Of a stretch of 64,000 nt of DNA, positions 3,447-58,729 are shown piece after piece; the stretch's first letter is position 1; each line of letters starts with the position of its first letter. Both the position numbers and the translations under genes were made by a program. Under the pieces are notes generated by a model. That model was given only the letters and a program-made list of their open reading frames with translations. It was not told the DNA's origin and searched no databases. The stretch is from Collimonas fungivorans Ter331 (GTDB lineage Bacteria > Pseudomonadota > Gammaproteobacteria > Burkholderiales > Burkholderiaceae_D): contig NC_015856.1 of assembly GCF_000221045.1 (NCBI RefSeq), forward strand, positions 2,052,687 to 2,116,686. Reading direction: 5' to 3'.

Positions 3447-3489
3447 GCCGGCAATCTCTGCCGGCCCGGTAGTTCCTCGTACAGCTGCT

Positions 3490-5358: not shown

Positions 5359-8070
<2,712 letters not shown>

Positions 8071-8095
8071 GATTTCTCCTGGGTTTTCAGTTTAA

Positions 8096-8581
8096 TTACA
8101 AGCTATGTGCCGGATCGACAGGCGCAGCGGCCGGCAGCAGTTCTTGCTCTGCCGATTTGCATTCGTTGGCCAGCTGATGTCCTGTTTTTGAATCAAGCAA
8201 AATGCCCTTGGCCGGGATGCCGATCCAGAGCAGGCCGTATTTGCGGTTTTCAAAGCGGTTGGCGCCGGTGGTGGTCGGCACGCGCGAAAGGCGGTGCAGG
8301 GCTTTGCCCCAGCGTAGTGCAATGTGCTTGTCGTCTTCGGCATTGGTGAAAATGGTCAGGCTGTTGCCGAGCTCGCATTTGTAATCGATGGAAACCGAAG
8401 TCTTGACGTCCGGCGTGCCTTCATCCTCGCCGTCGTCGACTTCCGCCGGCGCTGCCTTTGCAGCTGGCTTCTTGGCCGATTTCTTGACGGTTTTCTTGGC
8501 GCTGGTCTGGGCTTGCACCTGCGGTGCTGCAACTGCCAGGCCGGCGCACAGCAAAACTAAAATAGACAGACTCTTTCTCAT
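8096..8581 (-). CDS. MliC-like periplasmic protein (putative C-type lysozyme inhibitor family)
   Basis: A 161-aa protein. Residues 1-23 are a signal peptide (MRKSLSILVLLCAGLAVAA, then a QAQ cleavage region), followed by a Lys/Ala-rich linker (SAKKTVKKSAKK) and a C-terminal domain starting IDYKCELGNSLTIF and ending HQLANECKS. The two cysteines and the WIGIPAKG region resemble the MliC/PliC fold, whose members inhibit host lysozyme. I chose ATG 8581 because GGAG lies 8 nt before it; ATG 8587 is too close. There is no lipobox, so it is probably soluble. Function is inferred from fold only. Confidence 0.65.
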   Translation of the reverse strand: MRKSLSILVLLCAGLAVAAPQVQAQTSAKKTVKKSAKKPAAKAAPAEVDDGEDEGTPDVKTSVSIDYKCELGNSLTIFTNAEDDKHIALRWGKALHRLSRVPTTTGANRFENRKYGLLWIGIPAKGILLDSKTGHQLANECKSAEQELLPAAAPVDPAHSL

Positions 8582-8642
8582 TTCCATTGCTCCATAATAA
8601 ATTTCGTGTGCATCCCGCTTTTCTTGTAATTGCGGGGCGCTG

Positions 8643-9614
8643 TTATAACAAAGTTGCTGCGCCTTCAGGTAGTGCGACACCGTTGTTTTTTGCACGCTGC
8701 AGGACGCTCCAGTAGTAACGGTAACTGGCGCGGTCATGCAGCGTGCCCTCGTGTTGTATCGGCCCCCAGTCTGCCTGCCGGGCCGCAAGCAGGATCTGTG
8801 CCGCAGCGGCTATCTCGGACTGCGGCGGGGTGAATGCATTCAATATCGGCCTGATCTGCTGCGGATGGATGCTCCACATGCGGGTATAGCCGAATTCGCT
8901 GACTGCGCGACCGGCATCGGCAGCGACGCTGGCGCTGTCCTTGATGTCGGTGGTGACGTTATGCGACGGCACCTTGCCGTGCGCATGGCAGGCCGCGGCG
9001 ATTTCCAGCTTGGCGCGGGTGACCAGTGGATGGCTGAACTGCGCCGGCGAGCGCATCGCTGCGCTGGGAATGGCGCCGTAGTGCGCCGAAACAAAATCCA
9101 TGATGCCGAACGACAGCGACTGCACCTGCGGCAGGGCGGCGATGGCGAACACGTCGGCCAGCGCGCCATGGGTTTCTATCAGTACATGGACCGGCAAAGC
9201 CTGCCGTCCGGCCTGGCTGCTGTGGTGTTCTATCAGGGCGATGGCGGCGCTCACCTCGGCCAGGCTTTCGGCCTTGGGCAGCATCAGGTAAGCCAGCCGG
9301 CGCGCCGCGCCTTTGCAGATGATCTCTACGTCTTGTTCGAAAAAAGCGCTGCCGCTATCGTGCACGCGCGCCCCGATGCGCTCAAAGCGGTTGTCGGCGC
9401 CGCCGATGACGGCGGCCACCAGTTGAGCGTGTGCTGCTTCGTTGCCGGCGCTGGCGCCGTCTTCGCAGTCGAGCGTGATGTCGAATACCGGACCCAGCTC
9501 CTGCTGCAGCGCGACCGACTTACGCATGAGCTTTTCAGCGCCGGCGTAATGATCGCAGACCGGTAGCGAGACCGGCTGCTGCTTGCCTAGGAATAAGACC
9601 TGGGTAGGATGCAT
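8643..9614 (-). CDS. HpcH/HpaI aldolase / citrate lyase beta-like (CitE-like) protein
   Basis: A 323-aa TIM-barrel protein of the CitE-like CoA ester lyase family. The acidic metal-binding motif is in FDITLDCEDGA, and the HVLIETHGAL and SFGIMDFVSAHYG blocks provide further metal and CoA contacts. Relatives act as malyl-CoA/citramalyl-CoA lyases or thioesterases. There are no citD or citF genes beside it, so it is not part of a citrate lyase complex. Its place between mdh and acnA fits a role with C4/C5 CoA esters (inference). Exact substrate unknown. Confidence 0.82.
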   Translation of the reverse strand: MHPTQVLFLGKQQPVSLPVCDHYAGAEKLMRKSVALQQELGPVFDITLDCEDGASAGNEAAHAQLVAAVIGGADNRFERIGARVHDSGSAFFEQDVEIICKGAARRLAYLMLPKAESLAEVSAAIALIEHHSSQAGRQALPVHVLIETHGALADVFAIAALPQVQSLSFGIMDFVSAHYGAIPSAAMRSPAQFSHPLVTRAKLEIAAACHAHGKVPSHNVTTDIKDSASVAADAGRAVSEFGYTRMWSIHPQQIRPILNAFTPPQSEIAAAAQILLAARQADWGPIQHEGTLHDRASYRYYWSVLQRAKNNGVALPEGAATLL

Positions 9615-9661
9615 TGCGACTTTTTGTTGGGTGTGGCGGTAAAAAATTCTGTATTCAAGCG

Positions 9662-9691
9662 CTGCATGGCAATGGCTGTGTTGCCATGCAG
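9662..9691. other. perfect inverted repeat between mdh and the CitE-like gene
   Basis: The 11-bp arms CTGCATGGCAA (9662-9672) and TTGCCATGCAG (9681-9691) enclose an 8-nt loop. On the minus strand it lies about 30 nt after the mdh stop, with a T-rich stretch a dozen bases further on. It may act as a weak terminator or an RNA-stabilising hairpin that sets mdh apart from the downstream genes. Confidence 0.55.
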
Positions 9692-9719
9692 GTGCTGCGG
9701 GTGTACGTGCCTGAGGGGA

Positions 9720-10709
9720 TTAGCCGACCAGGTGTTTCACGCCGTCACGCTCTTCTTGCAGTTCTTTCAGCGTGATGTTGATGCGCTCTTGCGAGAAGGC
9801 GTCGATTTCCAGGCCCTGGACGATTTTGTATTCGCCGTTTTCAGTGGTGACAGGGAAACCGAACATGGTGCCTTCAGGAATGCCGTAGGAACCGTCCGAC
9901 GGCACGCCCATGGTGGTCCACTTGCCGTTGGTGCCGAGCACCCAGTCACGCACGTGGTCGATGGCAGCGTTGGCGGCCGAAGCAGCCGACGACAGGCCGC
10001 GCGCTTCGATGATGGCGGCACCGCGCTTGCCGACGGTCGGCAGGAACACGTCCTTGTTCCAGACCTGGTCGTTGATCAGGTCCTTGACCGATGCGCCGTC
10101 GGCTGTCGCGTAGCGATAGTCGGCGTACATGGTTGGCGAGTGGTTGCCCCAGACGAACAGTTTTTCGATGCTGGCGACCGGCTTGCCGATCTTGGCCGCG
10201 ACTTGCGACAGGGCGCGGTTGTGGTCCAGGCGCAGCATCGCGGTGAAGTTCTTGGCCGGCAGGTTAGGCGCCGATTTCATGGCGATGTAAGCATTGGTGT
10301 TGGCTGGATTGCCGACCACCAGCACCTTGACATTGCGCGAAGCGACAGCGTCCAGCGCCTTGCCTTGCACCGTGAAGATCTGGGCGTTGGCTTCCAGCAG
10401 GTCTTTGCGTTCCATGCCTGGGCCGCGCGGACGGGCGCCGACCAGCAGGGCGACGTCGACATCCTTGAATGCAGTCAGCGGATCGCTGTGGGCAGTGATG
10501 CCGGCCAGCAGCGGGAAGGCGCAATCGTCGACTTCCATGATCACACCCTTGAGCGCTTTTTGTGCTTTTTCGTCAGGGATTTCCAGCAGTTGCAAAATGA
10601 CTGGTTGATCTTTGCCGAGCAGGTCGCCGTTGGCGATGCGGAACAGGAGGGAATAACCGATTTGACCAGCGGCGCCGGTAACGGCAACGCGCAGAGGGGA
10701 CTTAGCCAT
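9720..10709 (-). CDS. mdh: malate dehydrogenase
   Basis: A 329-aa NAD-dependent malate dehydrogenase that oxidises malate to oxaloacetate. The Rossmann motif is [10 protein letters not shown] at residues 11-20. The substrate loop [15 protein letters not shown], the catalytic Asp in [11 protein letters not shown] and the His in [10 protein letters not shown] are intact. This form is the one typical of betaproteobacteria. It is transcribed away from the GntR regulator, with about 315 bp between their starts that contain a perfect palindrome. Confidence 0.97.
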
Positions 10710-10966
10710 GTTGAATCTCCAGAGAGGTGGTAGAAAAGCGATGTCTGTTGGTACGTTTGCGTAATATATCTATCGTAGCGATGCTGCGCAGCCTCTAATG
10801 ATACCGGCGAAAGCCGTGTGCGTCAGTTTGTTTCGCTTTGAGCGGGAGCCGGAATTCACGGCTTGCATCTCTTGCATGAAACGCGATCTGAGCGCGGCGC
10901 CAGCCGTCAATTAGTGCTTATGCCCGCGAGTTTAGGCTTGGCAACATGGTATGTCAATCAATATCT

Positions 10967-10986
10967 TATGTCTTATATAAGACATA
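10967..10986. promoter_or_regulatory. 20-bp perfect palindrome, candidate GntR/HutC-type operator
   Basis: TATGTCTTATATAAGACATA is its own reverse complement. It sits 38 bp before the likely start of the GntR gene in the mdh-gntR divergent region. HutC-subfamily regulators bind GT-N-TA-N-AC type palindromes, and the core GTCTTATATAAGAC fits that shape. Autoregulation and control of mdh or sdh is an inference. The rest of the 315-bp interval shows no gene. Confidence 0.6.
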
Positions 10987-11024
10987 TCATTGCGCATTTT
11001 TTGCTGGACGACAATGGGTGTTTT

Positions 11025-11837
11025 ATGGTGAAATCTGAGCTTATGAGTTCCATCCCGTCCAATGTGAGCAGTGACCCCGCCGGCCAGAGCGCTGCTGTTC
11101 CTGCATCTCCCTCGGCATCGTCCCCGACCTTCAGTCCCCTCTACCAGCAAATCAAGGCGCTGATCATGCAGCGCCTGCAATCCGGCGAATGGAAGCCGGG
11201 CGAACTGATCCCTAGCGAAGTCGAGCTCGGCAACCGTTTCAAGGTCAGCCAGGGCACGGTGCGCAAGGCGATCGACGAGCTGGCCGCGGAAAACCTGCTG
11301 GTCCGGCGCCAGGGCAAGGGCACGTTTGTCGCCACCCATCACGAAGCGCGTTCGCAGTTCCGCTTCCTGCGCCTGATGCCGGACAGCGACCAGCCGCAAG
11401 TTACCGATAAAAAAGTCATCGAACTGAAGCGCCTGCGCGCGCCGGCGGAAATTGCGCGCCTGCTGGGCATGAAATCGGGCGACTCGGCGGTGTATGTCAA
11501 GCGCGTCATGGCGTTCGACGGCGTGCCGACCATACTCGAAGAGCTGTGGCTGCCGGGCGCGCTGTTCAAGGCCCTGACGCTGGAGCGCCTGGTGGAATAC
11601 AAGGGGCCGATGTACGGCCTGTTTGAAACCGAATTCGGCACGCGCATGATCCGTGCCACCGAGCAGATCCGCGCCGCCAGCGCCGACGCCGATGCGGCGC
11701 AGTTGCTGGCGGTGGAAAAATCGTCGCCTTTGTTGTGCGTGGAGCGCGTCTCTTTCACCTATGGCGATAAGCCGGTAGAAGTGCGGCGCGGCTTGTATGT
11801 GACCAATCGTCATCACTACCAGAACGAGCTGAACTGA
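11025..11837 (+). CDS. GntR-family (HutC/UTRA) transcriptional regulator
   Basis: A 270-aa protein with a variable N-terminal tail (about 35 residues rich in Ser, Pro and Ala), a GntR winged helix (FSPLYQQIKALIMQRLQSGEWKPGELIPSE ending GQGTFVATHHE in form; motif split here by the alignment) and a UTRA ligand-binding domain with PTILEELWLPG. It lies directly upstream of sdhCDAB in the same direction, and in related genomes a GntR gene has the same position, so it probably controls TCA genes in response to a metabolite (inference). ATG 11043 is an alternative start; neither has a strong ribosome site. Confidence 0.88.
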   Translation: MVKSELMSSIPSNVSSDPAGQSAAVPASPSASSPTFSPLYQQIKALIMQRLQSGEWKPGELIPSEVELGNRFKVSQGTVRKAIDELAAENLLVRRQGKGTFVATHHEARSQFRFLRLMPDSDQPQVTDKKVIELKRLRAPAEIARLLGMKSGDSAVYVKRVMAFDGVPTILEELWLPGALFKALTLERLVEYKGPMYGLFETEFGTRMIRATEQIRAASADADAAQLLAVEKSSPLLCVERVSFTYGDKPVEVRRGLYVTNRHHYQNELN

Positions 11838-47957: not shown

Positions 47958-49121
47958 ATGGCAAAAAAGAATTTTCAAACCGCGCTGATCCACAGCGCGT
48001 ACCAGGCGCCAGAAGGTTTTGACGCCTTCCCGGTCGGCATCCACCACGCCTCCACGGTGCTGTTCAAGAACGTCGCCGCGATGCGGGCCCGCAACTGGCA
48101 AGAAAAGAGCGGCTATACATACGGCTTGCACGGCACCCCGACTTCCTTCACGTTGGAAGCGCGCCTGGCGGAAATCGAAGGCGGCCGGCATTGCTTGCTT
48201 GCCCCTAGCGGCCTGGCGGCGATCACCATGGTCGACCTGGCCCTGCTGAAGAGCGGCGACGATGTGCTGCTGCCGGATAATGTGTACAACCCGAACCGCG
48301 ACCTCGGCAACTGGCTGGCGCGCGATTTCGGCATCAGTGCGCGCTATTACGACCCCTTGATCGGCGCCGGCATCGCCGCCCTGATCCAGCCGAATACGCG
48401 CCTGATCTGGACCGAGGCGCCGGGTTCGGTGTCGATGGAAATGCCGGATATTCCAGCCATCTGCCAGGCTGCCCACGCCAGGAACGTACTGGTGGCGATC
48501 GACAACACCTGGTCGGCCGGCCTGGCCTTGCGCGCTTTCGATCTCGGCGCCGATATTATCATGCATGCCCTCACCAAATACCAGTCAGGCGGCTCGGACG
48601 TGCTGATGGGAGCGGTGATCACGCGCGACGACGCCTTGAACCAGCGCCTCCAGACCGCCCACATGCGCCTGGGCCTGGGCGTCGGCATGGACGACGTCTA
48701 CCTTGTGCTGCGCAGCCTGCCGACCATGCAGATGCGCTTCGCAGCGCATGACGCCGCGGCGCGCCAGGTTGCCGCCTGGCTCAAGCAGCGTCCCGAGATT
48801 AGCCTGGTGCTGCATCCGGCCTTCCCGGATTGTCCCGGACACGAGATCTGGCAGCGCGATTGCAACGGCGCCGCCGGCTTGTTCTCGGTGGTGTTCGACG
48901 AACGCTACAGCGAAGAGCAGACCGACCGTTTCGTCGACAGCCTGCAGCTGTTCAAGATCGGCTACAGCTGGGGCGGCGCCAACAGCCTGTGCGTACCTTA
49001 CCGGATCCAGGGCATGCGCCAGAACTGGCAAGGCAAGGGCATCCTGGTGCGCTTCAATATCGGACTGGAAGATGTGCAGGATCTGATTGCGGATATCGAA
49101 CAAGCCTTGGCTGTCATGTAG
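47958..49121 (+). CDS. metC: cystathionine beta-lyase
   Basis: A 387-aa PLP-dependent Cys/Met metabolism enzyme. The PLP Lys is in MHALTKYQSGGSDVLMG, and the N-terminal ALIHSAYQAPEGFDAFPVG and ASTVLF blocks are typical. It cleaves cystathionine to homocysteine, pyruvate and ammonia. The accessory island begins after it. Confidence 0.9.
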   Translation: MAKKNFQTALIHSAYQAPEGFDAFPVGIHHASTVLFKNVAAMRARNWQEKSGYTYGLHGTPTSFTLEARLAEIEGGRHCLLAPSGLAAITMVDLALLKSGDDVLLPDNVYNPNRDLGNWLARDFGISARYYDPLIGAGIAALIQPNTRLIWTEAPGSVSMEMPDIPAICQAAHARNVLVAIDNTWSAGLALRAFDLGADIIMHALTKYQSGGSDVLMGAVITRDDALNQRLQTAHMRLGLGVGMDDVYLVLRSLPTMQMRFAAHDAAARQVAAWLKQRPEISLVLHPAFPDCPGHEIWQRDCNGAAGLFSVVFDERYSEEQTDRFVDSLQLFKIGYSWGGANSLCVPYRIQGMRQNWQGKGILVRFNIGLEDVQDLIADIEQALAVM

Positions 49122-49214
49122 TACGTTATCAAGCTACGTCTTCCCCTAGTGCCCGCCGACACCGTGCTATCCACATTTACTGCGGTGTGCACTGCCAGGA
49201 TATGGTGTCCCGTG

Positions 49215-49665
49215 AAAGCGTAGCGGATCGGTGCTGGTGCCGACGGCCAGCGCGCCGTAGCTATCGATAAATTTCCTCGGATTGATGGTTGCCATATGTA
49301 GTGTCTGGCCGAAGCGAAGCTGAGGCCGATTTTTCCTCTCTCATGCGCGACGCCGACAATCAATGCTGTGGTCACCACCTACCAAATACTGTGCACCCGC
49401 CACATTCAAACGGGCAGCTGCCGCCAAATGCACCTTGCAGCTGATCGGACTCTCATATTCTCCAAGTACCAGGCCCTAGCGCGATGCTATCCGACACCAA
49501 GATGCTGTGCTCGATATCCTTGGCGCGGAACATGGTCTTCAACATGTTTGCCTGCAGGTGATGGTCATCGGCGATGAGCGGGGCGTACAGGCGATTTTCG
49601 ATCAACCGGTCCACAGGTAGTTGGGATGGCGCGCCCGGGTCAGGGGCGCCGCGCTAAAGATGATC
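49215..49665 (-). pseudogene. decayed amidohydrolase (NagA-like) gene, C-terminal part
   Basis: Read on the minus strand, pieces of one protein appear in different frames: RHPNYLW (about 49615), ENRLYAPLIADDHHLQANML, FRAKDIEHSILVSDSIAL, a short VAGAQYL block, and ATINPRKFIDSYGALAVGT (about 49232-49288). These match successive blocks of N-acetylglucosamine-6-phosphate deacetylase-like amidohydrolases (DGHHL, LVSDA, NPARFLG-type motifs). At least three frameshifts and a stop interrupt it and the N-terminal half is missing, so it is a relic. The rest of 49122-49838 holds no other gene that I can see. Confidence 0.6.
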
Positions 49666-49781
49666 ATTGACTTGAAGGGCTGGGACGACAGCTTGCAAAA
49701 TAGAAAATGGCTCCTAGGAAATTCATAACATTACTCCAATTGCTTATTGTATAACCATGTCGTTTTATTAAACTTGGGACT

Positions 49782-49798
49782 GAGCGGATTGACCGCTC
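49782..49798. promoter_or_regulatory. inverted repeat upstream of the precursor-peptide gene
   Basis: GAGCGG (49782-49787) and CCGCTC (49793-49798) are perfect arms around ATTGA, 40 bp before the peptide start and just before TACAAT (49801-49806). It could be an operator, or the TACAAT a -10 box. I find no -35 at proper spacing, so the promoter is not settled. Confidence 0.35.
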
Positions 49799-49838
49799 GT
49801 TACAATCTCAACCGTTTAATTAGCATAGGAGAATTATT

Positions 49839-50000
49839 ATGCAAGAAAATAAAACCGCTGTGGCCGACTGTAAAGCCACAGTCGACAGCGAAGCCATCGT
49901 CCAACGAGAAGCCTCGATTGAGGACTTGGGTCTGGAAGTCGTGGAAGACACGCCACAGATCGCCTTAGGTCGCCCGGTTCGTCACATCCGCGCTCAGTAA
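49839..50000 (+). CDS. putative RiPP precursor peptide, 53 aa
   Basis: ATG 49839 follows AGGAG (49827-49831) at 7 nt. The peptide starts MQENKTAVADCKATVDSEA, has an acidic middle (EASIEDLGLEVVEDTPQ, residues 24-40), and ends IALGRPVRHIRAQ. The acidic, helix-prone part looks like a leader, and the C-terminus, with Arg at 45, 48 and 51 and Pro46 and His49, like a core. No Cys or Ser/Thr cluster suits lanthionine or azole formation. The modifying genes and exporter lie right downstream, after a terminator. Precursor status is inferred from size, position and context; it may be cut after LG44 (speculation). Confidence 0.72.
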   Translation: MQENKTAVADCKATVDSEAIVQREASIEDLGLEVVEDTPQIALGRPVRHIRAQ

Positions 50001-50020
50001 GGCTCTAAGTAGAGCAAGCA

Positions 50021-50042
50021 AGGGCGGGTCTCCGCCCTTTTC
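50021..50042 (+). terminator. terminator/attenuator between precursor and enzymes
   Basis: AGGGCGG (50021-50027) pairs with CCGCCCT (50032-50038), loop GTCT, followed by TTTT. It lies about 20 nt after the precursor stop and 50 nt before the next gene. Partial termination here would give more precursor mRNA than enzyme mRNA, an arrangement common in RiPP operons. Confidence 0.78.
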
Positions 50043-50091
50043 CATTCTCCAGCTATCGTCTCGACTAGCCATCACCTAGGAGTGCTTGGGC

Positions 50092-52572
50092 ATGCCACAG
50101 ATCCCTATTGAACGCGGATTTTTCGACCCTGATTCAATTAAGAATCTGGCCCGCTTGTATGAGCACGTTAGCGCGCACGAGCGAGCCGTGGCTGAGTACG
50201 AGTACGATCCGGTTAAATCGCCGCGGCTGATGGAACCACTGCTCCTCAAGCGCTCCTTTGAACCAAAACTGTTCGACGACCACCTGTTCCTCAAGTTGTT
50301 CGAGTGTATTTCGGCCGACGCAGAACGTGCGATCAGCGGACTGTTCCGGGTCTATATCGATGGCATGCTGAGTCCGCAATATGAGAACGAAGTGTTGTCT
50401 ACGAAGCCGCTGCCAGGCGAAGGATTCGAGGCTTATGTCAGCCGAGCAACCGGTGGGCGCAAGTTCGGCATTGTAGTCAACGGGGTCGAGCAATGGTCCG
50501 ACACGCTAGCACGCTTGGCGGCGCGCTTGTTTGCACCGATCGTGGAGGCCCAGGGTGCAGCACGCAGCACGATCGAGGTTACGCTGTTCATCGGCAACTA
50601 CGGCTACACCCCTTTCGGCATTCATATCGACGATCCCTACACCTCGGTGGTGCATTTTCATGCTGGACCGACCACGAAGGAAATGACTCTCTTCGGCATC
50701 AAAGAATTTCATCTTCTGAATGGAGTAACTAAGAATTGCTTTCAGCCGCAGAAGTTGATTCCGCATGGTCGCACCTTCGCAATCGAGTCGGGCGACGTGT
50801 TTCTGCTGCCCCCGCACTGCTATCACATCGGCAGCACTGAAGGCTTCTCGATCGGTGTGGCATTTGCGCTGTCGAAATACTCCGGTGCGACGATGACCAA
50901 ACAAATCTTGCAGCGTGCAGTCGGTGAAAAACATATGACTGGCTCGCTAGATGACGTGATCGGCCGGGCGCAGGCAGATGGTGTGTCGCTGTCCGACTGG
51001 TTGCGGCGTATGGGCAACGAATATGTTGTCCAGGCGCGCAGCAGGCGGAATTTGCGGTATTCATTTCTGTGTTCTACCGAGCCAGAGGCGACTCCGTGGC
51101 AGCTGTGGGAGCGCGATCCGGACTTTCCGTTGTCTCAGCTAGAAGAGGGTGACGACCTACTGTTGTTTGCGCGCGGTAACCGCGTGCGTCTGGCGCGCAA
51201 CGAGTTAACGCTACGCTTGGTGGCGGCACTACCGTACACGGCATTCAGTATCGAGCAGCTTTACAGCGCACTGCACGGCGATGTATCGCGCGATGCACTT
51301 TCGACGTTGGTGCATCAGCTGGTTCGTGTGGGTGGCGTGCGTCGCATAACCGCAGCAGAGGAGGATTGCCAGCTGCTTCATGCGCCTCATTGTCACTCAT
51401 TGGTATCGAATAGCATGGACATCGATCCATCCTGGGCGCGACGACTCGTTGTCATGTCGGAGCAATTGAGCGTGTGTGCGCATCTGCCCGGCGTGATGCC
51501 CGGATACGACCAGGTACGCGAGATCATCGCTGAGATGTTCACTCGCTTCACGCCACAAGAGCTGCCGCGCTCGCGTGCCTGGGTCGATGGCGGCCAGCTC
51601 TACACAATTACCGATGCCCTCGTCGAGTTAGCCGATAAACCCGGCCTGACGCTGGCACAGCGACTTGCCAAGGCGTGTCGGTCGCTGCACTATTGTGTGA
51701 CTGTCAATGGCCTGTCAGCGTGGCACGAGCCCTTCGCGCAGCACATGCAGATACGCATGCTGGATCCGCTGTTCGCCGAATTGAACGGTGCACCAGCCTG
51801 TGGCACTGATTTCTATACGTTCATCGGCAACTATGGCTACACACCCTTTGGTGTGCACGATGACACAGATCAGTCACTGCTGTGGCATCTGGGGCCGGCA
51901 TCGAAGGTGGCCTATATTTGGCCGCGTGCGCGCTACGTTGAACTGACCGGTGGTACGCTGGCGACCGTGGATTACGAGGCGCTGTTGCCTTATGCGCAAC
52001 GTTACGAGTTGCGGCCCGGAGATCTGTTGTTTATCCCGATGGGTGACTTCCATGTCCTCGAAACGCGCAAGTTTTCGTGCACCATGGGGCTGACGCTGTT
52101 TCCGGAGGACGTGCGACTCGAGTGCGCCGAGGCGTTGCGCCTATTGGCGCCGGACGAGCGCGCGTTGCAGGCGATGGCACAAGCGCCGGTCACGCTCGAT
52201 CAATGGGCCAGCTTGCGTCGCATGGCAGTGCAGAGCAATGGTTACATGATCACGCCGCCGCAATTGGACTCCATGTGGGGTGTCGTTCCAGACGCGGCAT
52301 CACTGCGCCGCTGCACGCTGCGCATCCGGCCGTCGTGTCCATTGCGCACTGCCGAGGTCGCCGGCCGCCAGGTATTGTTTGTGCGTGGCCGCGTGATCTG
52401 GGGGCGGCCGAACGCCTTATTCGGCCATCTCTGCGAGGCGCTCGCCAGTGGCGAACAGATACCGTTTGAGGTGCTGGAACAGCAGTTGTCTGGCACGGTG
52501 CAGGCAGAGGCCGTGGTCGATCTGGTACGCAAGATTGCGACATTAGGTGGGGTGTTAATTGAGCAGCATTGA
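50092..52572 (+). CDS. double JmjC/cupin protein with two winged-helix-like modules (putative peptide hydroxylase)
   Basis: An 826-aa protein with an internal duplication. JmjC domain 1 (about 70-262) has the Fe(II) triad H178-x-D180 and H245. JmjC domain 2 (about 458-672) has H589-x-D591 and H654. Both share the identical block FIGNYGYTPFG before the HxD. After each comes a short winged-helix-like module (about 355-420 and 757-822: a beta strand, helices, then LVRVGGVRRI or IATLGGVLIEQ), resembling the wHTH of YcfD-type oxygenases and also the PqqD-like RRE of RiPP enzymes. ATG 50092 has AGGAG 9 nt upstream, better than TTG 50086. Likely hydroxylates the precursor; whether both active sites work is unknown. 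Confidence 0.78.
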   Translation: MPQIPIERGFFDPDSIKNLARLYEHVSAHERAVAEYEYDPVKSPRLMEPLLLKRSFEPKLFDDHLFLKLFECISADAERAISGLFRVYIDGMLSPQYENEVLSTKPLPGEGFEAYVSRATGGRKFGIVVNGVEQWSDTLARLAARLFAPIVEAQGAARSTIEVTLFIGNYGYTPFGIHIDDPYTSVVHFHAGPTTKEMTLFGIKEFHLLNGVTKNCFQPQKLIPHGRTFAIESGDVFLLPPHCYHIGSTEGFSIGVAFALSKYSGATMTKQILQRAVGEKHMTGSLDDVIGRAQADGVSLSDWLRRMGNEYVVQARSRRNLRYSFLCSTEPEATPWQLWERDPDFPLSQLEEGDDLLLFARGNRVRLARNELTLRLVAALPYTAFSIEQLYSALHGDVSRDALSTLVHQLVRVGGVRRITAAEEDCQLLHAPHCHSLVSNSMDIDPSWARRLVVMSEQLSVCAHLPGVMPGYDQVREIIAEMFTRFTPQELPRSRAWVDGGQLYTITDALVELADKPGLTLAQRLAKACRSLHYCVTVNGLSAWHEPFAQHMQIRMLDPLFAELNGAPACGTDFYTFIGNYGYTPFGVHDDTDQSLLWHLGPASKVAYIWPRARYVELTGGTLATVDYEALLPYAQRYELRPGDLLFIPMGDFHVLETRKFSCTMGLTLFPEDVRLECAEALRLLAPDERALQAMAQAPVTLDQWASLRRMAVQSNGYMITPPQLDSMWGVVPDAASLRRCTLRIRPSCPLRTAEVAGRQVLFVRGRVIWGRPNALFGHLCEALASGEQIPFEVLEQQLSGTVQAEAVVDLVRKIATLGGVLIEQH

Positions 52573-55147
52573 TCTGCGCTTCCGCTCGGCTCTACAATCG
52601 GTGTGGCAGCGCAGCGTAGCTGGCTTTGCCGAGCTGGGTATCGCGGTGCCAAAGCCGATCGCACTCGCAGAGCGCGGCGAGAACGTTGGTCGCTATCTAT
52701 GGGCTGCGATTTGCGCAGGTGCGCCTTGGAGTACTGTCGGCATGGTGATCGCTACGCTGCTGGGGACGGCCGGCAACCTCGGTCAGTCCTTCGTGCTCGG
52801 GCAGGTTGCTGAGCAGGCGCTGGGCGGACAGCGCCTGCTGGTCACTTGGCTATTGTTGGCGCTGATGACGCTGTGGCTAGCGGGGCCGTTGCTGCAAGTA
52901 CTGCATAGCTTGGCGCGTCTGTATGCGAGCCAAAACCTGCGCATCGTCGTGACTGACCATCTTACCGCACGGCTGATGCACGCGCGACCGCGACAGGTGG
53001 CCGATAATGCCGTGGGCAATCTGGTCGAGCGCATCGAACTTGCGTCGACTAGCCTTCCAGGTGTGGTCTGCACGGCTGCCGACACACTGGTCAAACTCTT
53101 GTCGGTGACGGTATTGGCGAGTCTCGTGTTGGCGGGCGTGTCGCCCTCGATGGCGCTGCTGGCTGGAGCATGGATGTTGACGGCGCTGCTGCTGTCGAGC
53201 TATCTGGCTTATACCGGAATGAACATCGTCGAGAACGCAAGCGACGCGCACGCTAAGGTGATCGCAGACCTCGCCGAGATCATCACCAACGTTCCTCTGA
53301 TCCGCAGTTTCACTGCGCAGGCGATGGAGCGCCGCCGTTTCGGCACAGTGCTGCGGGCTGACCTCTACGCTTGCCGTCGCGTGCGTAGCTATTGGGTCTT
53401 CGTTCTGTTGATTGAAGCCGCGTACAAGTGGCTATTTGGTTTAACCGTCGCGATCTATACAGTGCAGCAGTACGGTGCGGGCATTTTGCCCCTGCCGCAG
53501 TTGATCACGATCTGCTCGCTGATCATCGCACTGAGCTGGCATTTTGAATCTGTTGCCTTCCATTTTGTGGATCTTTTCGATGCACTGGGCGTGCTGCGGT
53601 CGGGATTGCGTGAGCTGTCTGTGATCGAAGTTGATCTTGGTCTCGATAGCCAGCCGCTGCCTAAGCCCGGTCACGTTGTGCTGGAGAACGTGACCGCGTC
53701 GTACAATCACGTCGAGATGCTGCGCGATGTGAGCCTGCGGATCGAGCCGGGTAGCAAGGTCGGTATCGTCGGGCCGTCGGGTTCTGGTAAGTCAACGCTG
53801 CTGGCGGTGTTACGTGGCGATCTGAAGCCGGATCTAGGGCGCGTCGAACTGCATGGCGCGCCACTGGCGGACTGCTCGGCCGGACAGCTGGCTCGTGCAT
53901 CGAGTGAGGCGGTGCAGAACGCACTGATGTTCAATCGCAGTGTGCGCGAAAACATTGCCTACGGGGCGTCAGAGTCGGCGATGAAGACGATCGAACATGC
54001 CCTGTCGGCGGCGCAGGCGCTGCAATTAGTGCAGGGCCTCTCGAGGGGCATAGAGACCGAGGTCGGTGAGCGCGGCGCGTCGTTGTCCACCGGTGAACGG
54101 CAGCGGCTAAGCATCGCACGCGCGCTGCTCAAGCACGCGCCGCTAGTTGTATTCGATGAGGCCACCTCATCCATCGACACGATCTCCGAAACGCGTATCA
54201 TCGACTACTTGGTCGACGACACACCTGGGCGCACCGTCATCGTCGTCACGCACCGTGTGGCTACGCTCGAACGCTTCGACCAGATTGTGGTGATGAACCA
54301 GGGCCGCATCGTCGACGCCGGCTCGCCGCAGGAGCTGCTTGCCCGCAATACGCTGTTCCAGCAGCTACTGCGCCACGAAGACGATAGCCGCGGCATCCGC
54401 CATCCGCACATGTCTCAGACCTCATTTCCCACCGAACCCACGCTACTGAAGGGTGCGACATACCACTGGCAAGCGCATCGCCGTTGGACTTGGGACTTCA
54501 TCTCCAGCAGGGGTGGTGACCTGCTGACGCTGACCGATACACAGGGCGAGCCGGCCGGCGAAGTACGGTTGGCCGATTACATGCGGGCGATACGTTATGG
54601 TAAGAAACCTTTGGCGTCGCTTTATGCCTCCGGTTGGCGTTTCTTCGAGCAGCACCCAGACATGCTGGCTGACTTCAGTGAGCCGTCCGAAGCACAGCCC
54701 GATGTGCTGCAGCGTATTCCGCAGCGCTTGTTCAAGCCGTTGCTATGGATCTTCATCGGACCAGAAGGGTCAGGCACAAGCTTGCACTACGATGTGCTTG
54801 ACACCCATGCCTGGCTGGCAGTGATTCGTGGTCGTAAGCGGATCGCATTGCATCCGCCAGCATTACTCGTTGCCGACTACAACAAGCACCGTGCCGACGC
54901 TGTTGTCGTGTTGCGCGAGCGCCGTGATCAGGGACATTGGCGTTACTTCGAGCAGGAACCGGGTGACCTGCTATTGATCCCGGCTGGCTGGTGGCACGAG
55001 GTCGTTAACGAAGGCTTGACGTTGGGCTTGACCCGTAATTTCGCGACGCCCGACATATGCAACCGCGTGGTGCAGGCCGCGCACGCGCAAGGATTGGCGT
55101 CGCTACAGCCTTGGATGGAAGAAATGCGAGAGGAGGCGCTACCGTGA
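52559..55147 (+). CDS. ABC exporter fused to a C-terminal JmjC/cupin domain
   Basis: An 862-aa fusion starting at TTG 52559 (AGGTGGGG 6 nt before it), overlapping the previous gene by 14 bases. Residues about 55-340 are an ABC transmembrane domain with six helices. Residues 370-605 are the ATPase: Walker A GPSGSGKST (405-413), signature LSTGE (509-513), Walker B VVFDEATS and H565. Residues about 625-845 are a JmjC domain with H743-x-D745, and H813 in AGWWHEVVNEG. There is no N-terminal C39 peptidase domain. I infer an exporter of the modified peptide that carries an oxygenase at the cytoplasmic side; I know of no such fusion. Confidence 0.85.
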   Translation: MSSIDLRFRSALQSVWQRSVAGFAELGIAVPKPIALAERGENVGRYLWAAICAGAPWSTVGMVIATLLGTAGNLGQSFVLGQVAEQALGGQRLLVTWLLLALMTLWLAGPLLQVLHSLARLYASQNLRIVVTDHLTARLMHARPRQVADNAVGNLVERIELASTSLPGVVCTAADTLVKLLSVTVLASLVLAGVSPSMALLAGAWMLTALLLSSYLAYTGMNIVENASDAHAKVIADLAEIITNVPLIRSFTAQAMERRRFGTVLRADLYACRRVRSYWVFVLLIEAAYKWLFGLTVAIYTVQQYGAGILPLPQLITICSLIIALSWHFESVAFHFVDLFDALGVLRSGLRELSVIEVDLGLDSQPLPKPGHVVLENVTASYNHVEMLRDVSLRIEPGSKVGIVGPSGSGKSTLLAVLRGDLKPDLGRVELHGAPLADCSAGQLARASSEAVQNALMFNRSVRENIAYGASESAMKTIEHALSAAQALQLVQGLSRGIETEVGERGASLSTGERQRLSIARALLKHAPLVVFDEATSSIDTISETRIIDYLVDDTPGRTVIVVTHRVATLERFDQIVVMNQGRIVDAGSPQELLARNTLFQQLLRHEDDSRGIRHPHMSQTSFPTEPTLLKGATYHWQAHRRWTWDFISSRGGDLLTLTDTQGEPAGEVRLADYMRAIRYGKKPLASLYASGWRFFEQHPDMLADFSEPSEAQPDVLQRIPQRLFKPLLWIFIGPEGSGTSLHYDVLDTHAWLAVIRGRKRIALHPPALLVADYNKHRADAVVVLRERRDQGHWRYFEQEPGDLLLIPAGWWHEVVNEGLTLGLTRNFATPDICNRVVQAAHAQGLASLQPWMEEMREEALP

Positions 55148-56400
55148 CGACCGACTACGCTAATCACTATCGCGTACACCCGCGGCTGCGCTGGGAGCTC
55201 GCTGGCGATGGGCGGGTCGAGATGCGTCTGCCGTTCGGCAGCAAGCGTCTACGTGCAGCTGAATCCATCGCGACACTGCTGAAACGCGCTGCAGAAGAAC
55301 CGCCGAAAACTGGCGATGTGCTGGCTCAGTGCCTGGGCACCAGTGTGTTCGAGACACTGGTGAAGTACCTCTTCTTGTTGCCAGAGAGCCAAGCAGACGC
55401 GCTTGGCGGCGGATTGTGCATACCGGCTGCACGGCCCGCCGGATGCGCGTTGCCAGTGTACGATCTCGATATGCTCATCGAAGACGATCTGGTGTTGCTA
55501 CACGTGCCAATCGCTACAACGGCCGAGGGAAAAGTCTCGGTGGCTAGTGGAGGCCGCTGGGTACGCACGCACTTGGCTCAGTCGATTGAGTCGCCGCTTG
55601 GGGCATCGGCTCGGCAAGGAGTATTGTTAGACCTCGATTTTGGTTGTCAACTCGATACTGCGTCAATGCGCCTGTTCGATGTGGGTGATGTGGTTCACCA
55701 GCCGCTCCAGGATCGAGCGAGCGACATCGGCGAACGCGCTGCTTATGTGTGTCGGACGATCGTCACCCGCGGAGCGCGGCCGTTGATCTTAGGTGGTGAC
55801 CACGCGCTAGCCTACTACAGCGTCGGCGCGCTGGCTCAGCGCTACCCGAGGCTGGGGGTGCTGCAGATCGATGCGCACCCGGATCTATATACGGTCGGCG
55901 CAGTCTGCGATGAACGGCTCAATCACGCCAACGTGATGCATTGGGTGCGCCGCATGCCGCACGTGCTGGCGCTGTGGCAGGTAGGGGTGCGCGACTTCTT
56001 CCATCAGCCGACCGAACGAGTTGCCTGCGTGCACGATCCGAAGGTGCAAGTACTGTCAGCTTTCGAGGCCGAGACCAGCGGCTACCAGCGACTTCTCGAC
56101 GGCATGGATCCGTCCTTGCCCTGGTTTGTTACGTTCGACGTCGATGCGCTCGCGCTCGCCGATTATCCGCAGACCGCTACACCTGTGCTCGGCGGGCTCA
56201 GCCTTTATCCGTTGCTAGCTTGTTTCGAGCGGCTGTTTCATGAGTTTCACATCGTCGGCATGGAGTTCGTCGAGATCGGTGATGCGCCACCAGAGGCGCA
56301 TGGCACCGCGGCGATCGCGGCTCGCCTAGCCAGCCGTTACCTCTTTCACCTGCGTAAAGTCACGCCTACGCGGGATCTGCTGTATTCAACGATCGTCTAG
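55144..56400 (+). CDS. arginase/ureohydrolase-family enzyme (putative peptide arginase)
   Basis: A 418-aa protein starting at GTG 55144 (AGGAGG 7 nt before it; GTGA overlap with the exporter stop). An N-terminal region of about 150 residues, with a winged-helix-like stretch around 22-80, precedes a ureohydrolase domain. All six Mn ligands are visible: H220 in ILGGDHA, D243, H245 and D247 in DAHPD, and D332 and D334 in FDVDALALADYP. The domain order differs from free arginases and agmatinases, which lack such an N-terminus. With the Arg-rich peptide upstream I infer Arg-to-ornithine conversion on the peptide, as done by RiPP peptide arginases such as OspR. Hydrolysis of a small guanidine compound is the alternative. 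Confidence 0.8.
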   Translation: MTTDYANHYRVHPRLRWELAGDGRVEMRLPFGSKRLRAAESIATLLKRAAEEPPKTGDVLAQCLGTSVFETLVKYLFLLPESQADALGGGLCIPAARPAGCALPVYDLDMLIEDDLVLLHVPIATTAEGKVSVASGGRWVRTHLAQSIESPLGASARQGVLLDLDFGCQLDTASMRLFDVGDVVHQPLQDRASDIGERAAYVCRTIVTRGARPLILGGDHALAYYSVGALAQRYPRLGVLQIDAHPDLYTVGAVCDERLNHANVMHWVRRMPHVLALWQVGVRDFFHQPTERVACVHDPKVQVLSAFEAETSGYQRLLDGMDPSLPWFVTFDVDALALADYPQTATPVLGGLSLYPLLACFERLFHEFHIVGMEFVEIGDAPPEAHGTAAIAARLASRYLFHLRKVTPTRDLLYSTIV

Positions 56401-56410
56401 GAACACTGTG

Positions 56411-57073
56411 ATGCCCGATCTCTATGACCTGCTGCTGCACTTGCCAGGCGTTGTGCCAGCCGAGGAGTGTGACATCATCATACGCAGTTTCGACGAGTTG
56501 CAGCAACGGGGCGGTGCCTATCGCGAGTCGTCGATGGATGCGAGCTCTGGCCGGCGTGTCGAATCGACCTTCAACGCAGTGTCACTGCCGCCCGGTTCCA
56601 TGGCGTTTGAGGCGGCGCACCGGCGCACTTGGACTGCGCTAAAGGCCTGGCTCGACTATCTCGAGGCACAAGGGCGCTACAACACCAAACTACTTCGTAG
56701 GTCGCTGCGCTATTCGCACGACTACCGCGTGCTGCGTTACGCCATGGGCGCGCAAATCCATCCACACACCGACTGGGATGAGTTCACGCTCGCTAGCTGC
56801 ACGCTCGCACTGAACGACGACTACACCGGCGGTGAGTTCGGCTTCTTCAACGATGACCGGCGCATCCGCTTGAACCGGGGCGACGCACTGATCTGGCCCG
56901 CCGACTGCTTCTGGGTGCACAGAGTGACGCCAGTTAAATCAGGTATACGCTATGGCGTCAACAGCTTCATCACGTCAATGCCTGAGGTGATGAAGTCGAA
57001 GGTGGCTGACGAACTCAACGCGCGACCGAAGCAGGAATGGGACTCGGTCTATCGTCACCACTTCGTCGAATGA
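56411..57073 (+). CDS. 2OG/Fe(II) dioxygenase, prolyl-4-hydroxylase type
   Basis: A 220-aa protein starting at ATG 56411 (AGGAA 7 nt upstream; a GTG lies just before). The double-stranded beta-helix core has H119-x-D121 in HPHTDWDE, distal H170 in DCFWVHRVTP, and the 2-oxoglutarate-binding R180. YTGGEFGFF and RGDALIWPA are typical of P4H-like oxygenases. It follows the arginase gene by 10 bp. It may hydroxylate the peptide, for example Pro46 (inference). The following 57074-57270 is AT-rich and holds no gene. Confidence 0.85.
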   Translation: MPDLYDLLLHLPGVVPAEECDIIIRSFDELQQRGGAYRESSMDASSGRRVESTFNAVSLPPGSMAFEAAHRRTWTALKAWLDYLEAQGRYNTKLLRRSLRYSHDYRVLRYAMGAQIHPHTDWDEFTLASCTLALNDDYTGGEFGFFNDDRRIRLNRGDALIWPADCFWVHRVTPVKSGIRYGVNSFITSMPEVMKSKVADELNARPKQEWDSVYRHHFVE

Positions 57074-57270
57074 ATTGGTGACGACGAATGTTTTTGCCAA
57101 GTACCGCCAAGTAACTGACTTATTTTCTCGCCCGAGATTCAGTGTCGCCAAGCTGAGGAATACGGTAGTTAAAATAGTTCCGTTTTCGCGGGAATAACGA
57201 TGGCGCATGGACGACAGCGGAAATTCTTGTCACTAATAAAAGGTTAGTGGTGCTGGTTGGATGCATTTTC

Positions 57271-58053
57271 CTAGGCTCTAGAGATGCGCGGCTTTTCCAG
57301 AAGATAGTGGCCAAAGCCAAGCGTCGATCTGCCAAACGCAAGGTAGTTCTGATACCAGCGCCTGGCGCGCTCACCAAAGGCTACGGTGTCGGGGTCGTGC
57401 GGATGAGATGCCGCATATTGCATGACCGCCTGGCAGTACATGTGTTCGTACCGGTCCCATTCCTCGTCGCTGCTAGCCATCGCCAGGCGCAACTTGAAAC
57501 CCTGCGCAAGTGCACGCGCAATGTTTTCGGCATGGCTGCTCAGCTCGTCTTCCGTGGCGCCGAGCGTCAGCAGATACTCATTCGACGGCGGCCGTTTCCA
57601 ATAGCCTTCACCCACCAGCAGCACGCCGCCGGGTTTCAGCCATTGACGGCAGAGCGCAAGGCTGGGCTCGAATCCCCCTAGTGCATGGGTGGAGCCCACG
57701 CACAGAATCGCATCGTAGCCGCCGGCCGGCAGCGGATGTTGTTCAAGCTGGCTGGCGATCAGCGTCAGCCGGCCATCGCCCGGGTTGCTGGCATCCCAGG
57801 CGTTGGCGGCTTCAGCCAGGAAAGCCGGATTGATGTCGACGCCGACACCGCACACCGGCTGCGACGCCAGCAAATCGCGCAGCAGCCCCGCTTTGCCGCA
57901 GCCGGCATCCAATACTAAAGAACCGGCCTGCAGTTGCAGCGCGGCCAGCAGGGTGGCGGCAATGCCTGCAGAAAGCGGGCTGCAGTAATGGTGGCCGCTA
58001 TGGGCGATGGTGGTGTATTTGAAGGGATTTTGCGCAGAAACAGAAGTGGCCAT
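57271..58053 (-). CDS. SAM-dependent methyltransferase
   Basis: A 260-aa class I methyltransferase. Motif I is LVLDAGCGKAG, VGVDINPAFL is the acidic SAM site, and YDAILCVGSTHALGG follows. ATG 58053 has AAAGGAA 9 nt upstream and is preferred over the upstream ATG at 58092. Substrate unknown. It is convergent with the RiPP-like operon and, by its GC-rich codon style, belongs to the core chromosome. Confidence 0.87.
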   Translation of the reverse strand: MATSVSAQNPFKYTTIAHSGHHYCSPLSAGIAATLLAALQLQAGSLVLDAGCGKAGLLRDLLASQPVCGVGVDINPAFLAEAANAWDASNPGDGRLTLIASQLEQHPLPAGGYDAILCVGSTHALGGFEPSLALCRQWLKPGGVLLVGEGYWKRPPSNEYLLTLGATEDELSSHAENIARALAQGFKLRLAMASSDEEWDRYEHMYCQAVMQYAASHPHDPDTVAFGERARRWYQNYLAFGRSTLGFGHYLLEKPRISRA

Positions 58054-58192
58054 GGCGGCGCGTTCCTTTAAAGTGGTTGATGTTTTTTTCACTCTTAAAA
58101 GAAACGCAAGCTTTCATACCCAACCTCCAGTCTGTCATGTCCACAGTGGTTTGCGGCTTATGCCGCAGCTCATGTTATCGCTGCAGTGGGGC

Positions 58193-58729
58193 TCAGGTCA
58201 ATTGTTGCAGCATATAGACCGCGGCATGCAGGCTGCCTACAACTTGATAGCTATCGAGATTTTCCCTGGCCGGCAAGTGCCTGACTTCGGCCGCGGCAAA
58301 GCCAAGGCTGCCCCAGAATGCCTGTGAATGCTGCACCGATACCAGGGCGCTCCAGCCAAGGTTTGCTGCACGCGCATGGCCTAGTGCAGCCGTTACCAGC
58401 AGATTCGCCGCCCGCTGGCCGCGCGCGGCAGGGGCGACCGCCAGGTCGTGCAGGTACAGACAATCCGGCGCCGAGGCCAGCTTGAAGCGGGCGCCGAGCG
58501 GGGTGATGACGTCCGTGCTGGTGGGATAGCTGAACAGATAAGCGGCGGCGTTATCCAGCCCCGGCTCCCAGATCCAACAAGTGGCCGGGGTCAGCGCCAG
58601 GCGGGCGCGGAAAACTTCTTCGGATTCCAGCATCGCCGGCGGATAGCACTCGGCCTGGATCCGCATGACGGTCGGGATATCGCTTGCCAGCATGGGCCGG
58701 ACCACGGGCGCTATGAGATTGTTACGCAT
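58193..58729 (-). CDS. GNAT-family N-acetyltransferase
   Basis: A 178-aa GNAT. The acetyl-CoA loop is in AVAPAARGQRAANLLV and the C-terminal FWGSLGFAAAEVRHL block is typical. Substrate unknown. A seven-copy heptanucleotide tract ends 30 bp upstream of its start. Confidence 0.87.
   Translation of the reverse strand: MRNNLIAPVVRPMLASDIPTVMRIQAECYPPAMLESEEVFRARLALTPATCWIWEPGLDNAAAYLFSYPTSTDVITPLGARFKLASAPDCLYLHDLAVAPAARGQRAANLLVTAALGHARAANLGWSALVSVQHSQAFWGSLGFAAAEVRHLPARENLDSYQVVGSLHAAVYMLQQLT

What the first reader, a model, noticed from the sequence alone, without database searches (positions are those of the whole stretch)
49839..57073. Putative new RiPP-type pathway: Arg-patterned peptide, three JmjC domains, peptide arginase, P4H-type oxygenase and exporter
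The sequence shows a 53-aa ORF, then four tightly packed genes (gaps of 14-bp overlap, GTGA overlap and 10 bp). They encode a double JmjC protein, an ABC exporter-JmjC fusion, an arginase-like protein with complete Mn ligands, and a P4H-like dioxygenase. From known chemistry, JmjC oxygenases hydroxylate Arg, His, Asn or Asp, peptide arginases make ornithine in RiPPs, and P4H enzymes hydroxylate Pro. The core ...GRPVRHIRAQ has Arg, His and Pro targets. I infer a hydroxylated/ornithine-containing peptide that is exported. I cannot name an existing RiPP class with this set.
Basis: partly seen in the sequence, partly recalled or inferred. Interest (0 to 1): 0.92.

Follow-up and report, generated by a model that had tools for sequence, protein, structure and literature searches.

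The report
New oxygenase-arginase peptide-modifying gene cluster
A mobile block of bacterial genes appears to make a small peptide ending in a strictly conserved Arg-Pro-Val/Ile-Arg-His-Ile-Arg stretch and to decorate it with several oxygenases and an arginase before export, a combination for which we found no described example.

Summary
In detail: a 53-aa ORF (49839-50000) precedes four packed genes with three JmjC domains, an ABC exporter, a PF00491 arginase and a 2OG oxygenase. Comparison strongly supports a RiPP pathway. The cluster occurs in eight further genomes (four Photorhabdus, one Sodalis, three unnamed); in 9 of 9 loci a 46-53 aa ORF lies directly upstream of the first JmjC gene, with a conserved leader and core RP(V/I)RHIR whose codons change mainly synonymously. 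Intact clusters keep the core (8/8); broken or truncated Photorhabdus loci do not (0/3). The modelled first JmjC half resembles YcfD/NO66 ribosomal oxygenases; the third JmjC is JMJD6-like, as would suit an ornithine hydroxylase. The block is an 8.2-kb insertion, missing at this site in 11 of 11 congener loci compared. Corrections: the ABC-JmjC fusion is unique to this genome; the 'P4H' gene is optional (3/9) and not evidently prolyl-specific; no leader protease is among the cluster genes. All chemistry (which Arg becomes Orn, where OH is added) is inferred, not shown. No description was seen in the open-licence papers searched. New variant of a known kind.

The parts
49121..57292 (.). 8.2-kb acquired block between the metC-like gene (47958-49121) and a methyltransferase gene (57271-58092, - strand)
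   Evidence: 11 of the 13 congeners with a metC match gave a locus; in 11 of 11 the left flank aligns to 49109-49121 and the block is missing; the right flank resumes at 57292-57293 in 7 and at 58199-58206 in 4; in L043 the flanks lie 93 bases apart. GC3 67-74% in the four enzyme genes and 57% in the precursor ORF versus 79-82% in metC, rimO, serB and mfd, but 69% in the adjacent methyltransferase.
49827..49832 (+). Shine-Dalgarno-like site AGGAGA of the precursor gene
   Evidence: read from sequence
49839..50000 (+). precursor peptide gene (53 aa)
   Evidence: homologue at the same place in 9 of 9 cluster loci; one copy in each of 9 genomes
49971..49991 (+). conserved core RPVRHIR (residues 45-51)
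   Evidence: RP(V/I)RHIR in 8 of 9 precursors; of the 7 pairs compared, 5 have no amino-acid change in the core despite 1-4 synonymous ones, and 2 have the V/I change only
50020..50039 (+). hairpin AAGGGCGG/CCGCCCTT between precursor and first enzyme gene, possible attenuator
   Evidence: 61-nt fold -21.1 kcal/mol, z -2.7, 0 of 200 shuffles as stable; a similar hairpin is visible by eye after the G365 precursor (sequence, not folded); NOT reported by the terminator scan
50092..51375 (+). dJ1: YcfD/NO66-like JmjC oxygenase half with C-terminal winged-helix-like domain (half boundary is approximate)
   Evidence: HxD...H conserved; model best matches YcfD, NO66, MINA53
51376..52572 (+). dJ2: second JmjC half, homologous to dJ1 (not modelled), a separate gene in 7 of 9 loci
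52559..54427 (+). ABC exporter half-transporter (membrane and ATPase domains); no C39 peptidase domain hit
   Evidence: Walker A/B and LSTGERQ
54428..55147 (+). J3: JMJD6-like JmjC domain, fused to the ABC protein only in this genome
   Evidence: Cupin_8 2e-15; profile hits JMJD6 at 1.5e-26; separate gene in 7 loci, not found in the 21-kb Sodalis locus
55144..56400 (+). arginase of PF00491 with roughly 115 residues before the family match; [quoted passage not shown]
   Evidence: extent of the PF00491 match
56411..57073 (+). optional 2OG-Fe(II) oxygenase (2OG-FeII_Oxy_3)
   Evidence: present in 3 of 9 loci

Best explanation
A horizontally acquired RiPP biosynthetic cluster. The 53-aa precursor has a leader recognised through its EDLGLEVVED region and a core RPVRHIR. 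Two YcfD/NO66-like JmjC domains (dJ1, dJ2) hydroxylate Arg and/or His side chains of the core; the PF00491 arginase, probably holding the leader through its N-terminal domain, converts at least one core Arg to ornithine; the JMJD6-like domain J3 hydroxylates the ornithine (or another basic residue); in this strain a further enzyme, a 2OG oxygenase, adds another hydroxyl. The leader is cut, probably just before the core at a small residue (G/A/S-Arg) by a protease encoded elsewhere, and the ABC exporter secretes the product. SHOWN by computation: precursor, its conservation and selection, co-occurrence, intact active-site residues, acquisition. INFERRED: every modification, its site and order, the cleavage site, export of this peptide, leader recognition, and the product's activity (I guess an antimicrobial or translation-targeting basic peptide).
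For: Conserved precursor in 9/9 loci across Photorhabdus, Sodalis and the window's order; protein-level selection; 8/8 intact clusters keep RP(V/I)RHIR while 0/3 broken or truncated Photorhabdus loci do, two of these lacking the cluster arginase genome-wide; active-site ligands intact; dJ1 model matches YcfD (Arg hydroxylase) and NO66/MINA53 (His hydroxylases) first; J3 nearest JMJD6; BipG/PbsQ JmjC enzymes hydroxylate Orn in a RiPP and KgrD is reported as a PF00491 arginase acting in a RiPP.
Against: No product or modification has been observed. dJ1 matches have TM-scores of only 0.37-0.49 in the first 32 rows, and by sequence dJ has just one PDB hit at E <= 0.01, TYW5 at 0.002; dJ2 was not modelled. 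The arginase model is poor overall (mean pLDDT 58; 74), its N-terminal domain has no credible Pfam or PDB hit, and it does not match the dJ winged helix by profile, so leader recognition rests on predicted secondary-structure order only. No leader protease or immunity gene is among the cluster genes; flanking genes of the other loci were not scanned by profile. No sigma-70 promoter was found on the + strand in 49600-50150. The Sodalis locus lacks J3 although its core is of the same type, and the optional oxygenase does not track any core residue (G275 has the core without it). The three altered-core loci are few, two share the RQIC form, and the P. tasmaniensis stop could be a sequencing error.
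Confidence: 0.85

Rival explanations
1. RiPP cluster, but the arginase is not a core-modifying enzyme: it supplies ornithine/urea from free arginine or agmatine, or acts as a scaffold, and only oxygenases modify the peptide.
For: NCBIfam places it nearest to agmatinases (88.7 bits, far below cut-offs of 174-302); no PF12640 (OspR-type) hit.
Against: The 8 cluster genomes checked each have at least one separate, better-scoring PF00491 ureohydrolase (own 318.7 bits vs 131.7). The cluster arginase has extra N-terminal sequence, lies in the operon in 9/9 loci, and is missing in the two truncated Photorhabdus genomes whose core is degraded (61, 95).
Confidence: 0.08
2. The small protein is not a precursor of a secreted product but an intracellular regulator or oxygenase substrate (like a ribosomal protein or a sensor) whose tail is hydroxylated as a signal.
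For: dJ1 resembles ribosomal oxygenases, which modify cellular proteins; no leader protease among the cluster genes.
Against: ABC exporter in the operon in 9/9 loci; RiPP-like leader/core conservation pattern; arginase plus JmjC as in biphenomycin clusters.
Confidence: 0.06
3. Chance ORF: the enzymes modify some other substrate and the small ORF is coincidental.
For: No family hit for the 53-aa ORF in Pfam or NCBIfam at E <= 0.1.
Against: 9/9 conservation, core residues kept under synonymous codon change, one copy per genome at the cluster (49, 55, 72).
Confidence: 0.01

Closest known systems
Biphenomycin clusters (bip/bpm/pbs)
   Same: RiPP with a peptide arginase making Orn from a core Arg and a JmjC/cupin-type enzyme hydroxylating that Orn (passages of PMC12707348 and PMC12257519; BipG section of PMC12707348)
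   Different: their arginase is of the UPF0489/PF12640 kind; their clusters also encode an MNIO, a B12 radical SAM enzyme and a TldD-type protease, and the precursor motif is FHAFRF; none of these is among the window's five cluster genes
Enteropeptin KgrD
   Same: a PF00491 arginase acting in RiPP maturation (statement in the introduction of PMC12703449)
   Different: acts next to a thiomorpholine made from Cys; the conserved core here has no Cys; KgrD sequence not compared
OspR-type peptide arginases (PF12640)
   Same: Arg-to-Orn is the predicted reaction
   Different: different family; no PF12640 hit
Ribosomal oxygenases YcfD/RoxA, NO66, MINA53
   Same: JmjC followed by winged-helix-like domain; the first 32 Foldseek rows of the dJ1 model are YcfD, NO66 or MINA53
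   Different: paired dJ1-dJ2, low TM (0.37-0.49), in a peptide operon; the substrate is predicted to be a short peptide
JMJD6
   Same: nearest solved relative of J3 by sequence (1.5e-26)
   Different: bacterial, small, in a peptide cluster

Membership tests
RiPP | gene-encoded precursor with N-terminal leader and C-terminal core beside maturase genes | tested here: met
   9 of 9 loci, protein-level selection
RiPP | post-translational modification of the core by those enzymes | not testable with these tools
   needs mass spectrometry
RiPP | leader recognition element (RRE, order beta3-alpha3; common, not obligatory) | tested here: inconclusive
   [quoted passage not shown] no sequence support
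RiPP | leader protease in the cluster (common, not obligatory) | tested here: not met
   none among the window's cluster genes; ABC protein has no peptidase domain hit
Peptide arginase PF12640 (OspR type) | PF12640 match | tested here: not met
   only PF00491 matched at E <= 0.1
Ureohydrolase PF00491 | six Mn ligands in GGDH, DxHxD, DxD | tested here: met
   conserved in 9 of 9 (8; G365)
Biphenomycin-type cluster | MNIO, B12 radical SAM, FHAFRF precursor | tested here: not met
   none among the window's cluster genes by Pfam; core is RP(V/I)RHIR
Ribosomal oxygenase (YcfD/NO66/MINA53) | JmjC with HxD...H followed by winged-helix domain | tested here: met
   for dJ1 (low TM); dJ2 by homology only
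Ribosomal oxygenase (YcfD/NO66/MINA53) | acts on a ribosomal protein | not testable with these tools
   needs an enzyme assay
Prolyl 4-hydroxylase | closest relation to prolyl 4-hydroxylases | tested here: not met
   the 9 PDB sequences matched at E <= 0.01 are PKHD-type hydroxylases (best 1.2e-4) and lysyl hydroxylases

The most novel reading that the evidence does not exclude
A new RiPP class in which ribosomal-oxygenase-type JmjC enzymes (the YcfD/NO66 kind) have become peptide maturases: dJ1 and dJ2 hydroxylate Arg and His of RP(V/I)RHIR, a PF00491 arginase with its own leader-binding domain makes ornithine, and a JMJD6-like enzyme hydroxylates it. This would give a hyper-hydroxylated basic heptapeptide, and would tie the winged helix of ribosomal oxygenases to the RiPP recognition element by common descent.
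Probability: 0.4. Interest if true: 0.88.

Novelty: new variant of a known kind. Interest (0 to 1): 0.78.

Why it matters
It would add a compact RiPP family that uses four or five oxidative/hydrolytic active sites on a seven-residue, Arg/His-rich core, with no crosslinking, heterocycle-forming or radical SAM enzyme among the cluster genes. It offers candidate peptide Arg/His/Orn hydroxylases and a further PF00491 peptide arginase. It also makes an evolutionary question testable: whether ribosomal oxygenases and RiPP maturases share their peptide-binding winged helix.

Tried and rejected
Rejected: (1) 'ABC-JmjC fusion' as a defining feature; it occurs in 1 of 9 loci. (2) Prolyl hydroxylation by the last gene; the gene is present in 3 of 9 loci while Pro is kept in all nine A8 precursors, and its relatives are PKHD/lysyl hydroxylases. 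(3) A plasmid home: arginase tblastn against 72,556 plasmids, no match at 1e-20. (4) Sequence proof of an RRE in the arginase N-terminus: no usable Pfam, PDB or profile match. (5) Defence-system reading: the PADLOC hits of the ABC protein (mad3, mad8) fall around its ATPase domain and that of the oxygenase is to a generic 2OG model; I judge them uninformative. (6) Weak JmjC hits in G197, G153 and G237 and in G440, G807 and G933: tblastn of the window's proteins on the stretches held for them found no precursor or arginase, so they were not counted as cluster loci; for G807 and G933 only about 3.7 kb was seen.

Limits: genome samples were partial (294 family, 399 order, 369 class, 398 phylum, 295 and 12 around Photorhabdus); the 84,980-species scan used six 8-residue arginase patterns and finds close relatives only. 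Flanking genes of the other loci were viewed as ORFs, mostly without profile scans. Paper searches: only listings were seen, in part capped (20 of 119, 20 of 21, 10 of 15, 15 of 35).

Full report
OBSERVATION. The 53-aa ORF has an AGGAGA site 6 bases upstream of ATG and no Pfam or NCBIfam match at E <= 0.1. The first enzyme has two JmjC halves (JmjC_2 1.7e-5), the second an ABC exporter plus Cupin_8/JmjC (2e-15), the third is PF00491 (1.3e-37) and the last 2OG-FeII_Oxy_3 (4.8e-11). NCBIfam scores for the arginase stay far below the curated cut-offs (best 88.7 bits).

RELATIVES. A double-JmjC search of 294 genomes of the same family gave 6 with a match, of which own, G275 (74%) and G001 (about 50%, split into two genes) are full-length. 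An arginase scan of the 84,980-species collection gave 5 loci: four Photorhabdus and one Sodalis. A profile of the dJ halves found G365 among 399 genomes of the order; in 369 genomes of the class it found, own apart, only single-domain matches in G807 and G933. That makes nine cluster loci, window included. Order in all: precursor, dJ1, dJ2, ABC, [J3], arginase, [2OG oxygenase]. J3 is missing from the Sodalis locus; the 2OG oxygenase is present in the window, G001 and G365 only. dJ1-dJ2 are fused in the window and G275 only; ABC-J3 only in the window.

PRECURSOR. Each of the nine loci has a 46-53 aa ORF directly upstream of dJ1. The region (I/V/L)(E/D)(D/S)LxLE(V/I)(V/L) and the core RP(V/I)RHIR are conserved; the N-terminus and the 1-6 residue tail vary. 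The core is exact in 8 of 9; P. tasmaniensis has RPVRQIC, and there the dJ1 frame carries an early in-frame stop. Core codons differ between window and G275 by 4 synonymous and 0 non-synonymous changes; for residues 26-52 dS is 1.88 and dN 0.05; in the N-terminus (1-25) dS 0.55 and dN 0.24. Of seven pairs compared, five have no amino-acid change in the core and two only V/I; some dS values are saturated, and between two Photorhabdus the N-terminus looks nearly neutral (dS 0.14, dN 0.12). A profile of the nine finds exactly one copy in each of the nine genomes (self-hits by construction, the point is that there is no second copy).

NATURAL DELETIONS. Of 12 Photorhabdus genomes 6 have a precursor-like ORF: the four above and G1053 and G1055. 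These two keep precursor and dJ1 but not dJ2, ABC, J3 or arginase in the 16-kb stretches read, and their genomes hold only two PF00491 genes each, both scoring like housekeeping ones. Their leaders are kept, but the cores read ACPVRQICHA and SRSVQPIR followed by a stop. So RP(V/I)RHIR is present in 8 of 8 loci with intact dJ1, dJ2, ABC and arginase, and in 0 of 3 broken or truncated ones. G1053 and P. tasmaniensis share the RQIC form, so these are probably not three independent events. In G1053 a HipA gene and a HipB-like gene (by eye) lie where the enzymes would be. A 295-genome sample of Photorhabdus's family gave 2 hits, both in Photorhabdus; 398 genomes of the window's phylum gave only the own one.

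MOBILITY. Eleven congener loci were compared (of 13 congeners with a metC match). In 11 of 11 the left flank aligns to 49109-49121 and the 8.2-kb block is missing; the right flank resumes at 57292-57293 in 7, and near 58200 in 4, where the methyltransferase gene is missing too; in L043 the flanks lie 93 bases apart. GC3 of the four enzyme genes is 67-74% against 79-82% for metC, rimO, serB and mfd (69% for the methyltransferase). The arginase of the window is 79% identical to G275 of its own family, but closer to Photorhabdus (59-60%) than to G001 of its own family (47%) (the node placing G001 has support 47 only). This fits horizontal spread.

ENZYMES. dJ1: AlphaFold2 on 11 sequences, mean pLDDT 73; the first 32 Foldseek rows are YcfD, NO66 or MINA53 (best YcfD 7.1e-14, TM 0.41/0.47). 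[quoted passage not shown] dJ2 was not modelled; it is homologous to dJ1. By sequence the only PDB hit of the dJ profile is TYW5 at 0.002. J3: nearest JMJD6, 1.5e-26. Arginase: nearest agmatinases and arginases over residues ~173-401 only; [quoted passage not shown] Foldseek best E. coli agmatinase 1.2e-11. Sequence support for an RRE is missing. The last enzyme is closest to PKHD hydroxylases (1.2e-4) and then lysyl hydroxylases. Metal ligands are kept: arginase 9 of 9; dJ1 8 of 8 plus one broken; dJ2 9 of 9; J3 8 of 8; 2OG oxygenase 3 of 3.

MECHANISM. By analogy with biphenomycin, where an arginase makes Orn and a JmjC enzyme then hydroxylates it (PMC12707348: passages and the BipG section; PMC12257519: passages), and with enteropeptin, where a PF00491 arginase is reported to act on a peptide (PMC12703449: parts 1 and 2 of 5 read), I propose: leader-guided hydroxylation of Arg/His by dJ1-dJ2, Arg-to-Orn by the arginase, Orn hydroxylation by J3, optional further hydroxylation, cleavage before the core, export. 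That YcfD hydroxylates an Arg of ribosomal protein L16 and NO66/MINA53 hydroxylate His is recalled knowledge, consistent with the PDB titles. A hairpin after the precursor (-21.1 kcal/mol, z -2.7) may raise the precursor-to-enzyme ratio; the terminator scan did not list it and no + strand promoter was found.

KNOWN OR NOT. Ten paper searches over open-licence PMC papers showed no description of this cluster in the rows listed, and none held the string RPVRHIR. Subscription papers are not covered. PMC12710340 (passages only) reports RRE-like folds fused to PF08007 JmjC domains in fish and algae, and says their closest bacterial homologues appear in RiPP-like contexts, which fits and partly anticipates the JmjC-winged-helix idea.

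Noticed in passing
L030 (G440), genes within 7001-11651, - strand: A distant dJ-like JmjC protein (408 aa) lies beside YcaO (8.3e-48) and TfuA (1.7e-30) genes: another possible RiPP context for this JmjC type.
   Followed up: partly
L016 (G237), about 8969-11394, - strand: Fragmented dJ-like JmjC pieces next to what looks by eye like a TonB-dependent receptor gene; genome reported 48% complete.
   Followed up: no
L019 (P. thracensis) 3246-3641: A second, fragmentary dJ1 copy somewhat over 1 kb upstream of the main precursor gene, preceded by a short piece resembling a precursor start.
   Followed up: partly
L039 (G1053) 6759-8337: HipA (1.4e-50) and a HipB-like gene (by eye) sit where dJ2 to arginase would be, downstream of precursor and dJ1.
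   Followed up: partly
G1047, G1048, G1049: An additional weak PF00491 match (47-66 bits, open frames of 302-307 codons) apart from the housekeeping and cluster arginases.
   Followed up: no
G000:C1:1933557-1934760: Two neighbouring 2OG-FeII_Oxy_3 matches elsewhere in the window's own genome.
   Followed up: no
window 49122-49838: About 700 bp inside the acquired block upstream of the precursor with lower GC (52%) and no clear gene; one small ORF there gave no Pfam hit.
   Followed up: partly
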